Assembly: GCF_028875915.1 (NCBI RefSeq)
Contig: NZ_JAPEHW010000002.1
Span: 62,001-126,000, forward strand
Direction of reading: 5' to 3'
From: Pseudoalteromonas sp. G4
Lineage (GTDB): Bacteria; Pseudomonadota; Gammaproteobacteria; Enterobacterales; Alteromonadaceae
Length of the DNA stretch: 64,000 nucleotides
The notes beneath the pieces were generated by a model. That model saw only the letters and a list, made by a program, of their open reading frames with translations. It ran no database searches and was not told where the DNA came from. Positions 8,796-12,442 of this stretch are shown here, in pieces. Each line of letters opens with the position of its first letter. Position 1 is the stretch's first letter. A program made the position numbers and the translations under genes.

Positions 8796-9680
8796 TTAGC
8801 ATAGGGTGATAGTGACCATTGCGTGATCCGTGGTGATATTAATTTCATCTTGGCTTATGTGACTATCCTGCACATTAAAATTAAGTTCTTGTAAATTCAG
8901 CTGACTTAAAATCGATTCAGGGCAAACAATATAATCAAGCACACTGCCATTACCAAAATAATAGTGCGTTGGTTTACGGATTAATAAAGAGCTGAGATAA
9001 AAACTATCGAGTAATTTAAGGTCAACATCTAGGTTATCTTTAAACTCAGTATGTTCGGTAAAGAAAGCTAAGTTAGATTGAATCGCTTGCTGATTAAAAT
9101 CACCCATAATAAAGGTAGCTAAAGGATTAGTAACTTGCTGAGTGATAAAGTCAAAATAAAGCAACCGCCCAATATGTTGAATGCAATCTGTTGGCATAGT
9201 TTGGTAATTTGGATGTTCTTCGACAAAATCAGTGGCACGTTTTGACTTTAAATGTGTGCCATAGAGCCTAATATGACCATATACAGGGTGTTCCATTTCA
9301 CAGTTTATGACTTCTCGCGATAACGGTGCCATTTTCATAAAAGTGGGTTGGTTTATTCTGCGGATATTTGTAAGCGGATATTTTGATGCAATGACCACTA
9401 TTGGCCGTTTAAAGAGGTAAGGGTTATTTGCATCTAACACCGGTTCATCGCAGGTGGCAAAGTGAGAGAGACCCAGTGGCGTAATTAAGTCACGTAATTC
9501 ATTGAGTGAAAAGACTTCTTGAAAACAAACAACATCAGCAGAAGTAGCGTTTAGTAACTCAAAAAGCCAAGATTGTTTTTGCTGCCACTGTGATTTTGTG
9601 TAGCTTGATTCAAAATCATAAAAGCAATAAGGCGGTGCACAATAATTACATAAATTAAGCGTGGCGATGGTCAGTGACAT
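8796..9680 (-). CDS. Endonuclease/exonuclease/phosphatase family protein
   Basis: This 294-residue protein has the layout of the EEP superfamily: IATLNLCNY at the start, VVCFQEVFS with the metal-binding Glu, GTHLKSKR, MGDFNQQ with catalytic Asp and Asn, and a C-terminal TDHAMV with the catalytic Asp-His. Substrate (nucleic acid, phosphoinositide or sphingomyelin-like) cannot be told. I start at the ATG at 9680 (MSLTIATLN) with GAAG upstream. A TTG at 9737 would extend it by 19 residues and lies near a stronger AAGGAG site, so the start is uncertain. Confidence 0.82.
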   Translation of the reverse strand: MSLTIATLNLCNYCAPPYCFYDFESSYTKSQWQQKQSWLFELLNATSADVVCFQEVFSLNELRDLITPLGLSHFATCDEPVLDANNPYLFKRPIVVIASKYPLTNIRRINQPTFMKMAPLSREVINCEMEHPVYGHIRLYGTHLKSKRATDFVEEHPNYQTMPTDCIQHIGRLLYFDFITQQVTNPLATFIMGDFNQQAIQSNLAFFTEHTEFKDNLDVDLKLLDSFYLSSLLIRKPTHYYFGNGSVLDYIVCPESILSQLNLQELNFNVQDSHISQDEINITTDHAMVTITLC

Positions 9681-9819
9681 TAGGGTTACTTCTTCACAAG
9701 ATTGACTTAAGTATGTGGCTTTTGGAAAATTAGTCAATCATTGCGCTTTCTCCTTGTATTTAATAATTTGCTAGTTAAAATAACTGCTTTACTTTCATGA
9801 GCCGAGTATTTAAGTAACC

Positions 9820-9891
9820 ACACTTATTGTAAAAGTGTTTTAAATACTGGACTCACTTTATTAACTGCAAGTGATGCATTGTAGGCATCAC
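9820..9891 (+). promoter_or_regulatory. thrS translational operator: two tRNA-Thr anticodon-arm mimics
   Basis: Hairpin 1 is ACACTT / AAGTGT (9820-9825 and 9833-9838) with a seven-base loop ATTGTAA. Hairpin 2 is GTGATGC / GCATCAC (9871-9877 and 9885-9891) with a seven-base loop ATTGTAG. In both loops the order is U33, then UGU at 34-36, then A37, exactly as in the anticodon loop of tRNA-Thr(UGU). Hairpin 2 ends nine bases before the AAGGA ribosome site. In E. coli, ThrRS represses its own mRNA by binding two similar arms (domains 2 and 4), so the same control is inferred here. Confidence 0.75.
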
Positions 9892-9911
9892 CACTGTAGC
9901 AAGGATTAAAC

Positions 9912-11822
9912 ATGCCAATTATTACTCTTCCAGATGGCTCACAACGAGCATTTGAAAACCCTGTTTCTGTATTAGACGTAGCATCAGATATCGGTCCTGG
10001 CCTTGCCAAGGCAACGATTGCTGGTCGCATTAATGGCGAGCGTGTAGACGCATGCCAACTAATCACCGAAGATAGCCAACTGGAAATCATTACCGCAAAA
10101 GACGAAGATGGTTTAGAAATCATTCGTCACTCATGTGCTCACCTATTAGGTCATGCAATTAAGCAACTTTACCCAGATGTTAAAATGGCGATTGGTCCAA
10201 CAATCGACAATGGTTTTTACTATGACATTGATATGGAGCACTCATTAACAGCGGAAGATCTAGAAAAACTAGAAAAGCGCATGTTAGAACTTGCGAAAAC
10301 AAATTACGACGTTGTTAAAAAAGTTGTGTCATGGCAAGAAGCTCGCGATACGTTTGAAGCGCGTGGCGAAACGTATAAGATGGAAATCTTAGACGAAAAT
10401 ATCAGCCGTGATGACACACCTGGTCTATATCACCACGAAGAATACATTGATATGTGTCGTGGTCCGCACGTACCTAATATGAAGTTCTGTCACCATTTCA
10501 AAATCATGAAAGTAGCTGGTGCATACTGGCGTGGTGATTCAGAGAACAAAATGCTACAGCGTGTTTACGGCACAGCATGGGCAGATAAAAAGCAATTAAA
10601 AGCCTACTTAAAGCGTCTTGAAGAAGCTGAAAAGCGTGACCACCGTAAAATTGGTAAAGCGCTTGATTTATGGCACTGGCAAGAAGAAGCGCCAGGCATG
10701 GTGTTCTGGCATAACGATGGCTGGAGCATTTATCGCGAACTAGAAGATTTCGTTCGTGAAAAACTTCGCGAATATAAGTACGAAGAAGTAAAAGGCCCAC
10801 TGATGATGGACCGTGTACTTTGGGAAAAATCAGGTCACTGGGATAAATATGGCGATGCAATGTTTACCACTGAATCTGAAAAGCGCGAATATGCAATTAA
10901 GCCAATGAACTGCCCAGGCCACGTTCAAATTTTTAACCAAGGTTTAAAATCATACCGTGATTTACCACTTCGTATGGCTGAATTTGGTTGTTGTCACCGT
11001 AACGAGCCTTCGGGTGCACTTCACGGCCTAATGCGTGTACGTGGCTTTACCCAAGATGATGCACACGTTTTCTGTACAGAAGAGCAGGTAATGGAAGAAG
11101 TGTCATCGTGTATCAAAATGGTATACGACACATACGAAACATTCGGCTTTGAAAAAATCGTGGTAAAACTATCGACCCGTCCTGAAAAACGCATTGGTGA
11201 AGACGAAATGTGGGACAAGTCAGAAAAAGCACTGGCTGATGCACTTGATGCAAATGGTATTGCGTTTGAATACCTACCAGGTGAAGGTGCATTCTACGGT
11301 CCGAAAATTGAATTCACACTATACGATTGTTTAGAGCGTGCATGGCAATGTGGTACGGTTCAGCTAGACTTCGCATTACCAGGTCGTTTAGGTGCAACTT
11401 ACGTTGCCGAAAATAACGAACGTAAAACGCCGGTAATGATCCACCGTGCAATTTTAGGTTCAATCGAGCGTTTCATCGGTATTTTAACTGAAGAATATGC
11501 GGGATTATTCCCAACTTGGTTAGCACCAAAGCAGGTTGTGGTAATGAATATTACCGACAAACAGTCTGAATATGTGACAGAAGTTGTAGAAAAATTGAAT
11601 AATCTTGGATTTAGAGCCTGTGCTGACTTGAGAAATGAGAAGATAGGCTTTAAAATTCGCGAGCATACTTTAAAACGTATTCCGTACTTACTAGTTGTTG
11701 GTGATAAAGAAGTAGAGCAACAAGAGCTAGCAGTTAGAACGCGTACTGGCGAAGACCTTGGCAAGTTATCAGTTGATGACTTTATTGCTAAGCTTGCTGA
11801 AGAAGTTAAAAATAGAAAATAA
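9912..11822 (+). CDS. thrS: Threonine--tRNA ligase
   Basis: The 636-residue enzyme charges tRNA-Thr. An N-terminal TGS domain (about 1-61) is followed by the editing domain with H73, H77, C182 and H186, the same four positions as in E. coli ThrRS. The class II catalytic core contains [32 protein letters not shown] and GRLGATYV. The C-terminal anticodon-binding domain begins near residue 535. ATG 9912 follows AAGGA. It leads the thrS-infC-rpmI-rplT cluster and its leader carries a likely autoregulatory operator. Confidence 0.98.
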
Positions 11823-11899: not shown

Positions 11900-12442
11900 A
11901 TTAGAGGCGGAAAAAAGGGCCCAGCGGCTCAAAAAAATCGTATCAACGAAGAAATTACAGCAAAAGAAGTCCGTTTAGTTGGCTTTGAAGGTGAGCCTTT
12001 AGGCATTGTTAGCCTGCAAGAAGCATTTGATAAAGCAGATGCTGCCGGTGTTGATTTAGTTGAAATTAGCCCAAATGCAGAGCCACCTGTTTGTAAAGTG
12101 ATGGATTTCGGTAAGTTCATCTTTGAAAAAAGCAAAGCACAAAAAGAACAAAAGAAAAAGCAGAAGCAGATCCAGATCAAGGAAATTAAATTCCGTCCAG
12201 GTACTGATATCGGCGATTATCAAGTTAAATTACGCAATTTAACTAAGTTCTTAGAAGCGGGCGATAAAGCAAAAGTTACTATTCGTTTCCGTGGTCGTGA
12301 AATGGCGCACCAAGAAATCGGTATTGATTTATTAAACCGCATTAAAGACGATTTACAAGACATCGCTCAAGTTGAGTCTTTCCCTAAGAAAGTGGAAGGT
12401 CGTCAAATGATTATGATGTTATCACCGATTGCTAAAAAGTAA
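11900..12442 (+). CDS. infC: Translation initiation factor IF-3 (AUU start codon)
   Basis: IF-3 binds the 30S subunit, discriminates start codons and prevents premature 50S joining. Starting at the ATT at 11900 the product is 180 residues, the same length as E. coli IF-3. It reads (M)[18 protein letters not shown] and matches the family throughout ([50 protein letters not shown]). A strong GGAGG lies at 11887-11891, eight bases upstream. A GTG at 11885 overlaps that site and is not credible. In E. coli the AUU start lets IF-3 repress its own translation. The same is inferred here. Confidence 0.95.

What the first reader, a model, noticed from the sequence alone, without database searches (positions are those of the whole stretch)
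9820..9891. Two tandem hairpins before thrS mimic the tRNA-Thr(UGU) anticodon arm
Both hairpins have seven-base loops (ATTGTAA and ATTGTAG) with U33, UGU at 34-36 and A37, on 6- and 7-bp stems. The proximal one ends nine bases before the ribosome site. In E. coli ThrRS binds two anticodon-like arms (domains 2 and 4) of its own mRNA and uses CGU. Here both arms show UGU and both are near-exact anticodon loops. This points to conserved ThrRS feedback control with a different isoacceptor as model.
Basis: partly seen in the sequence, partly recalled or inferred. Interest (0 to 1): 0.72.

Follow-up and report, generated by a model that had tools for sequence, protein, structure and literature searches.

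The report
Two-arm thrS feedback operator, Pseudoalteromonas
The leader of this bacterium's threonyl-tRNA synthetase gene carries two hairpins that imitate the anticodon arm of threonine tRNA, very probably the same self-limiting switch known from E. coli; relatives show that only two of the three imitated anticodon letters are kept, and that a small internal loop nearby is kept almost as strictly.

Summary
In detail: in 64 kb these are the only two hairpins (6 bp, 7-nt loop) with UUGUA at loop positions 33-37. The proximal arm (9865-9899) is homologous to domain 2 of the E. coli thrS operator: 90.2% of pair cells paired and 11 of 12 pairs with two-sided changes in 92 distinct leaders. A covariance model finds one clear site in this genome; in a class sample 89 of 97 hits lie just before thrS, the other 8 being weak. 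The distal arm is conserved in the genus, statistically supported in the order, not outside it. ThrRS feedback is the best reading. 'A different isoacceptor as model' is not supported: on a ThrRS tree base 34 changed at least 22 times, G35 and U36 never; E. coli's own distal loop carries UGU. New here: class-wide distribution, no Rfam match, apparent one-arm forms outside the order, and a nearly invariant CAC internal loop, one base of which coincides with a leader mutation reported in E. coli. No binding data exist for this species.

The parts
9798..9855 (+). Distal arm, whole hairpin (domain-4 counterpart): lower helix 9798-9803/9805-9814 with 9839-9855, 5-nt bulge 9815-9819, tip stem-loop 9820-9838
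   Evidence: MFE and centroid fold; letters
9820..9838 (+). Distal anticodon-like stem-loop: 6-bp stem, loop ATTGTAA with UGU at 34-36 (9828-9830)
   Evidence: genus counterparts
9856..9864 (+). Unpaired A/U-rich linker between the arms (counterpart of the E. coli linker by position)
   Evidence: fold; bipartite RBS with a U-rich stretch upstream of the hairpin described for E. coli in a passage of PMC3858243
9865..9899 (+). Proximal arm (domain-2 counterpart): outer 5-bp helix, 1x3 internal loop, 7-bp stem, 7-nt loop
   Evidence: alignment A1 and pair counts, selection-free check; R1 hit G000:C102:71865-71899, E 3.8e-12
9878..9884 (+). Proximal anticodon-like loop ATTGTAG; G35-U36 (9881-9882) kept in relatives, base 34 (9880) free
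9892..9894 (+). CAC of the internal loop; with the following U (9895) nearly invariant in the leaders that have the arm
9901..9905 (+). Shine-Dalgarno sequence AAGGA, predicted unpaired
9912..11822 (+). thrS, 636 aa: TGS, tRNA_SAD, class II core, HGTP anticodon-binding domain

Best explanation
This is the translational operator of thrS. Shown: two anticodon-like arms with G35-U36 in their loops flank a linker that is unpaired in the predicted fold, directly before the ribosome binding site; the proximal arm is conserved in sequence pattern, structure and position in a good part of the Gammaproteobacteria, and the E. coli operator is one of its members. Inferred: free ThrRS dimer binds the two arms with the anticodon-binding domains of its two subunits and its body keeps the 30S subunit off the linker and Shine-Dalgarno region; tRNA-Thr competes, so thrS is translated more when ThrRS is engaged with tRNA. 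Only G35 and U36 need to match; base 34 is probably not read. The CAC internal loop below the anticodon-like stem is probably a second, non-tRNA determinant: it may set the bend of the arm on the enzyme, be contacted directly, or serve the ribosome.
For: Stem covariation with controls: 90.2% paired against 26-50% when partners are slid, 11 of 12 pairs with two-sided change, 0 of 500 shuffles as high on any of five measures. Because A1 rows were picked by a scan that rewards pairing, I repeated it without: anchored on C[AG]CT alone, 119 distinct leaders have 92.6% of inner-helix cells paired against 23-48% slid. A scan blind to loop and tail finds a hairpin in 166 of 169 leaders; 162 have GU at 35-36 and 161 of these have C[AG]CT after the stem. 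Tree of 125 ThrRS rows: changes at 34: 22, at 35 and 36: 0, at the two C's of CAC and the following U: 0, at its A: 1; three stem pairs 19-25. Specificity: one site in this genome, next best E 0.48; 89 of 97 hits in 274 class genomes lie before thrS and the 8 others have E 3e-5 or worse. Distal arm: GU-loop arms 25-60 nt upstream of the proximal arm in 70 of 163 non-redundant leaders against a mean of 9.9 for the other 15 dinucleotides, no excess at 0-24 or 97-140 nt. E. coli operator biology from passages of PMC9976931, PMC3858243 and PMC6542539. ThrRS has the full domain set. A leader SNP reported in E. coli strains of a ceftazidime-borrelidin A evolution study (borrelidin A inhibits ThrRS) falls on invariant column 30 (passage of PMC13148393); its authors only hypothesise a regulatory effect.
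Against: No binding, toeprint or expression data for this species. The distal arm is not universal: 4 of 26 non-redundant leaders outside the order (mean of other dinucleotides 2.5), 7 of 23 in the rest of the family, so 'two arms for two subunits' cannot hold everywhere. U33 is replaced by G or A in 34 of 165 arms, so not all loops are canonical anticodon loops. 179 of 274 class genomes gave no R1 match at E 0.01 (strict filters). Six of 169 leaders have no such arm with its tail; one of them, L161, has a GU loop but not CAC. Covariation of the genus distal arm rests on 15 similar sequences, and one of its five measures is no better than shuffles (295 of 500).
Confidence: 0.88

Rival explanations
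1. Isoacceptor-specific sensing: the arms copy tRNA-Thr(UGU) and the operator reports on that isoacceptor.
For: The distal loop ATTGTAA differs from the genome's own tRNA-Thr(UGU) loop CTTGTAA only at position 32; two tRNA-Thr(UGU) genes and one tRNA-Thr(GGU) gene were found.
Against: Base 34 of the proximal arm changed at least 22 times on the tree and takes all four letters, including A in 11 of 165. The arms of one leader differ at 34 in 52 of 70 cases. A review table (passage of PMC9976931) lists G34, G35 and U36 as bacterial threonine determinants; a role of G34 would favour GGU, not UGU.
Confidence: 0.04
2. Only the proximal arm is the operator; the distal hairpin of the window is a passive structure (mRNA 5' stabiliser or standby-site element) whose GU loop is left over.
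For: Outside the order the distal arm is not supported, so one arm can suffice. The distal arm moves and is interrupted by bulges; in L069, L091 and L159 the GU-loop arm is followed by a run of T, as in a terminator.
Against: In the genus 62 of 63 leaders have a distal arm with GU kept through changes of stem and of loop length; order-wide excess of GU at the right distance.
Confidence: 0.15
3. The hairpins act through something other than ThrRS, e.g. a ribosomal protein, an RNase, or transcription attenuation or a T-box.
For: None direct; protein binding has not been measured here.
Against: No Rfam match at gathering score in the window and only two sub-threshold matches on the other strand (E 2.4 and 9.5) for 9700-9960; no terminator-like site at 9650-9960; strong hits of the element are restricted to thrS.
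Confidence: 0.04

Closest known systems
Escherichia coli thrS translational operator (domains 1-4)
   Same: Gene, position, proximal arm with 7-nt loop and GU, 1x3 internal loop with CAC, outer helix, unpaired SD, long distal hairpin with a GU loop; mechanism in E. coli as in passages of PMC9976931, PMC3858243, PMC6542539.
   Different: Base 34 (U in both arms here; C proximal and U distal in E. coli), distal loop 7 nt here and 8 nt in E. coli and in most of the genus, short linker (9 nt between outer helices here). No experiment in this genus.
Autoregulatory anticodon mimics of yeast synthetases (AspRS, HisRS and others)
   Same: A synthetase binds an anticodon-like hairpin of its own mRNA (passages of PMC6542539 and PMC9976931).
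   Different: Eukaryotic, unrelated sequences and enzymes; independent inventions by inference.
T-box leaders of thrS/thrZ in Bacillus
   Same: Feedback control of a thrS gene by tRNA-Thr (recalled; PMC2494555 seen as a listing, PMC3997798 as passages on leader processing).
   Different: A T-box reads uncharged tRNA directly and acts by antitermination (recalled); no T-box or other Rfam match here.

Membership tests
E. coli-type thrS translational operator | Lies directly upstream of the thrS start codon | tested here: met
   9865-9899, ATG at 9912
E. coli-type thrS translational operator | Proximal anticodon-like arm (domain 2): stem with 7-nt loop carrying G35-U36 | tested here: met
   E. 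coli row L004 in A1 aligns without gaps
E. coli-type thrS translational operator | Second anticodon-like arm further upstream (domain 4) | tested here: met
   9798-9855; genus 62 of 63; order-level excess
E. coli-type thrS translational operator | Single-stranded linker and single-stranded ribosome binding site | tested here: inconclusive
   Unpaired in the predicted fold; no probing
E. coli-type thrS translational operator | ThrRS with N-terminal domains and anticodon-binding domain | tested here: met
   Pfam TGS, tRNA_SAD, core, HGTP_anticodon; best PDB sequence match 1qf6, full length
E. coli-type thrS translational operator | ThrRS binds the leader and represses; tRNA-Thr competes | not testable with these tools
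   needs binding, toeprint and reporter assays
T-box leader | Match to the T-box model in Rfam | tested here: not met
   no Rfam family at gathering score in the 64-kb window; no T-box among the two matches at E up to 10. That Rfam holds a T-box model is recalled.
Known Rfam cis-regulatory family | Any Rfam 15 family matches the leader | tested here: not met

The most novel reading that the evidence does not exclude
The thrS operator of Gammaproteobacteria has two separate recognition elements: the anticodon-like G35-U36, borrowed from tRNA, and a CAC internal loop with no tRNA counterpart that is kept almost as strictly. The ancestral operator had one arm; the symmetric two-arm operator known from E. 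coli is a later elaboration in the order of the window's genome, its second arm recruited repeatedly and sometimes from terminator-like hairpins of the upstream gene.
Probability: 0.45. Interest if true: 0.65.

Novelty: new member of a known kind. Interest (0 to 1): 0.47.

Why it matters
The E. coli thrS operator is a textbook case of an mRNA copying a tRNA. The comparison turns it into an RNA family: it outlines its host range, says which letters selection has kept and which it has ignored, shows that identity rules (G35, U36) rather than a particular isoacceptor are copied, and points at an internal loop that deserves an experiment. The apparent one-arm operators ask how a dimeric repressor works on a single site. 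Four naturally occurring letters at position 34 are a ready-made test of what ThrRS reads on mRNA.

Tried and rejected
Chance hairpins: rejected. UGU as the conserved feature: rejected. Terminator or attenuator: no terminator-like site. Rfam family: none. Trans targets: in this genome the second-best R1 hit has E 0.48; in the class sample 8 hits do not precede thrS (L206-L210, L215, L216, L219), all weak and not pursued. Four hits outside the class (family f190) were fetched as L273-L276; the frames that begin within 150 nt downstream are not ThrRS and the hits look like chance, so the sample of 249 genomes of the phylum gave no support outside the class. An ACCA-like reading of CACCAC was considered and dropped: the first CAC belongs to the covarying stem.

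Rows left out before counts. Leaders: all 60 genomes of the genus sample, but of the family sample (118 genomes) only the 30 loci returned, plus E. coli K-12 and the 80 loci returned out of at least 588 candidates. A1 holds 92 of 116 distinct proximal arms, near-duplicates dropped by hand; 8 of 169 leaders lacked the fixed geometry (L071 and L088 have 8-nt loops; L161, L164, L167, L169-L171 have no such arm with its tail). A2 holds 15 of 21 distinct genus distal sequences; L061, whose arm looks different, and five near-duplicates were left out, and L060 was not found by the scan. The tree (FastTree) used 125 rows with long enough ThrRS and distinct protein plus arm; rows without the arm and tail are not in it, so 'never changed' holds for leaders that have the arm. 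Clade labels were typed by hand from kinship codes and record titles. In some searches arms were located with a score that rewards pairing, GU and CACTG; others (blind to loop; blind to loop and tail; and anchored on tail without pairing) are the checks on that. In some searches 8-nt loops are read in two registers, so CG and TG are raised by the same CGU and UGU loops (e.g. CG 10 in the genus). In one search the hit and thrS places were copied by hand; the list was cut, so 17 hits were resolved from fetched loci instead.

Full report
WHAT IS THERE. Between a divergent endonuclease/exonuclease/phosphatase-family ORF (its longest frame begins at 9737, minus strand; Pfam PF03372) and thrS (9912-11822) lie 174 bases. 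The MFE and centroid folds of 9790-9940 agree and contain both. The distal one is the tip of a longer hairpin (9798-9855) and the proximal one stands on a second helix (9865-9869/9895-9899) across an internal loop of A9870 against CAC 9892-9894. AAGGA (9901-9905) and the 9-nt linker are unpaired in the prediction. In the whole 64-kb window, both strands, 150 hairpins pass a simple cut-off (6 bp, 7-nt loop, pairing score); only these two carry UUGUA at 33-37. The genome is most likely a Pseudoalteromonas: a genus-mate in the search, G017, has a contig of the same length (88,517 bases) as P. luteoviolacea H33-S contig NZ_AUXY01000061.1, with thrS at the same place (inference).

PROXIMAL ARM. I collected 169 thrS leaders: 62 of the genus by search, further loci of the family, E. 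coli K-12 and 80 named contigs. A scan that ignores the loop (stem of at least 6 of 7 pairs, then C.CT) finds the arm in 163 of 169 and all 163 have GU at 35-36 (161 with 7-nt, 2 with 8-nt loops). The six without it are an Anaerobiospirillum, a Thiomicrospira, a Nitrosomonadales, a Sterolibacterium and two Prochlorococcus contigs. A scan that ignores both loop and tail, and takes the best 7-bp/7-nt hairpin ending 12-35 nt before the start codon, finds one in 166 of 169; 162 have GU at 35-36, and 161 of the 162 have C[AG]CT after the stem (CACTG 157, CGCTG 3, CACTA 1); the exception is L161, Anaerobiospirillum; two of the four without GU are the 8-nt loops read out of register. Of 116 distinct arms 92 were aligned (A1). 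With the structure taken from the fold, 90.2% of cells are paired against 26-50% when partners are slid; 11 of 12 pairs change on both sides; none of 500 shuffles reaches any of the five measures. The inner 7-bp helix is paired in 98.4% of cells, but rows were picked by a scan that rewards this. Without it, anchored only on C[AG]CT (164 of 169 leaders, 119 distinct), 92.6% of inner cells are paired against 23-48% slid. In the outer helix, which no selection used, the three pairs next to the internal loop are good (0, 0 and 8 of 92 not paired) and the two outermost poor (40 and 50 of 92).

WHAT IS KEPT. Over 165 distinct arms from 240 leaders, loop position 34 is G 68, C 66, U 20, A 11; 33 is U 131, G 21, A 13; 35 is G 165 and 36 is U 165. 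Counting events rather than sequences, on a FastTree tree of 125 ThrRS proteins, position 34 changed at least 22 times, 33 16 times, 37 17 times, three stem pairs 19-25 times each, and 35, 36, both C's of CAC and the U after it never; the A of CAC changed once. So what is copied from tRNA-Thr is G35-U36. A review table read in a passage lists G34, G35 and U36 for bacterial threonine identity (PMC9976931); the operators do not hold 34 to G.

WHERE IT OCCURS. Covariance model R1 was built from A1. In this genome: one hit at E 3.8e-12, next 0.48. In 274 genomes of the class: 95 with a match at E 0.01, 97 matches. The same sample was searched for ThrRS: 256 of 274 with a match at E 1e-100. Of the 97 hits 75 lie 4-25 nt before the matched start of thrS, 9 more by the reading frames in fetched loci and 5 more: 89 of 97. 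The 8 others have E 3.2e-5 to 0.008. In one search all 79 loci looked at (29 from the class sample, 50 from the phylum and order samples) precede a ThrRS-like N-terminus; none of these loci was a row of A1, though a few (e.g. L183, L230, L234) come from genomes of the family sample. Order sample: 109 of 148 genomes. Phylum sample: 43 of 249, of which 39 in the class; the 4 others do not precede thrS. Genomes of 0.3-1.1 Mb listed without a match in the order (G552, G696, G713) suggest loss with genome reduction (inference). The filters used above 40 genomes lose weak matches, so absence is not shown for any one genome.

DISTAL ARM. Leaders were thinned to 163 by shared 7-mers. Arms with GU at 35-36 in a 7-, 8- or 9-nt loop occur in 95 of 163 within about 160 nt, against 22.3 on average (maximum 31 of 30 sets) in dinucleotide-preserving shuffles; the next dinucleotide reaches 45. 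By distance from the proximal arm: 25-60 nt, 70 of 163 against a mean of 9.9 for the other 15 dinucleotides (next: TG 22, CG 20, both raised by the same loops read in a second register); 61-96 nt, 24 against 8.3; 0-24 nt, 3 against 4.9; 97-140 nt, 7 against 7.7. By clade at 20-65 nt: genus 13 of 14, rest of family 7 of 23, other Alteromonadales-like 7 of 18, rest of the order 41 of 82, class outside the order 4 of 26 (other dinucleotides 1.3, 1.3, 0.9, 6.1 and 2.5 on average). In the genus it was found in 62 of 63 leaders (missing: L060); by loop, 56 have CGU, 3 GGU (L052, L058, L063) and 3 UGU (window L001, sister L005, and L061, whose arm looks different) (counted). The usual genus loop is 8 nt (ATTCGTAA); the window and L005 have 7 nt. 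Pair counts on 15 of 21 distinct genus sequences: 95.8% paired, 3 of 8 pairs with two-sided change (3 of 500 shuffles reach this), slid controls 38-54%, but the number of pair types is no better than shuffles; this is supporting, not strong.

ISOACCEPTORS. A search with E. coli thrU found two tRNA-Thr(UGU) genes and, beside one of them, a tRNA-Thr(GGU) gene; other tRNA-Thr genes may exist.

HOW IT PROBABLY WORKS. In E. coli, by passages of PMC9976931, PMC3858243 and PMC6542539, ThrRS binds two hairpin motifs of the leader, hinders 30S binding and thus represses; the specificity can be switched with tRNA identity rules. I read no original operator paper (PMC452390 is not held); domain names and the competition by tRNA beyond those passages are recalled. 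The window's ThrRS has the same domains and its best solved-structure match by sequence is the full-length enzyme 1qf6; 1kog, recalled as the complex with the operator, is listed among the core structures. The parallel is close enough to expect the same mechanism. Steps shown: anatomy, conservation, place. Steps inferred: binding, repression, competition.

THE CAC INTERNAL LOOP. It is kept almost as strictly as G35-U36, though I know of nothing like it in the tRNA anticodon arm. Independent hint: a study of laboratory E. coli evolved with ceftazidime and borrelidin A reports a single-base change in the thrS 5' leader at genome position 1,802,589 (passage of PMC13148393), which its authors propose acts through the operator. 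That place is 19 nt before the start codon and is column 30 of A1, the second C of CAC, invariant in 92 of 92. One paper search for 'bulge' or 'internal loop' with thrS and operator listed 4 papers, which I did not open for this question. Older subscription papers may well have described the loop; I cannot tell.

NOVELTY. The element is a member of a known kind. In eight searches of the held library I noticed no paper on its distribution; I saw the listings, and passages of seven papers (PMC3858243, PMC9976931, PMC13148393, PMC2659441, PMC6542539, PMC10082850, PMC3997798). PMC2659441, a survey of cis-regulatory RNAs in Shewanella, has no occurrence of thrS in its main text.

Noticed in passing
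window 11900-12442: infC (IF3 domains) appears to start at ATT 11900, 8 nt after GGAGG; the non-standard AUU start recalled for E. coli infC seems to be kept. Gene order thrS, infC, a short ORF at the place of rpmI (not tested), rplT, as in E. coli.
   Followed up: partly
L280 (G033), L281 (G044), L282 (G022): Three genus members carry a second, shorter ThrRS-like protein (42-46% identity, residues ~240-631 only, without TGS and editing domains). R1 finds the operator in these genomes only at the main thrS (E below 1e-9; other hits E 0.17 or worse), so the second copy appears free of this control.
   Followed up: partly
L159, L069, L091, upstream of the proximal arm: The best distal GU-loop arm is a GC-rich hairpin followed by a run of T, i.e. 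looks like an intrinsic terminator of an upstream gene whose loop doubles as an anticodon mimic.
   Followed up: no
G011:C29:588728-590634: thrS of this genus member matches in two overlapping frames (residues 1-314 and 311-636), a frameshift or sequencing error.
   Followed up: no
L206 (G401:C8:71089-71123): Best R1 hit not before thrS (E 3.2e-5): strong stem, loop TTTGTAT, 10 nt before an ATG of a 444-codon open frame of unknown identity; may be chance.
   Followed up: no
proximal loops of L067, L068, L075, L083, L091, L097: Loop AGAGTAG: G at 33 and A at 34, an AGU 'anticodon' that, as far as I recall, bacteria do not use for threonine; a natural departure from a canonical anticodon loop.
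   Followed up: partly
L161 (Anaerobiospirillum sp. contig), just before thrS: A hairpin with loop TTCGTAG (CGU) but AAGGT instead of CACTG after the stem: possibly a divergent operator without the CAC loop.
   Followed up: no
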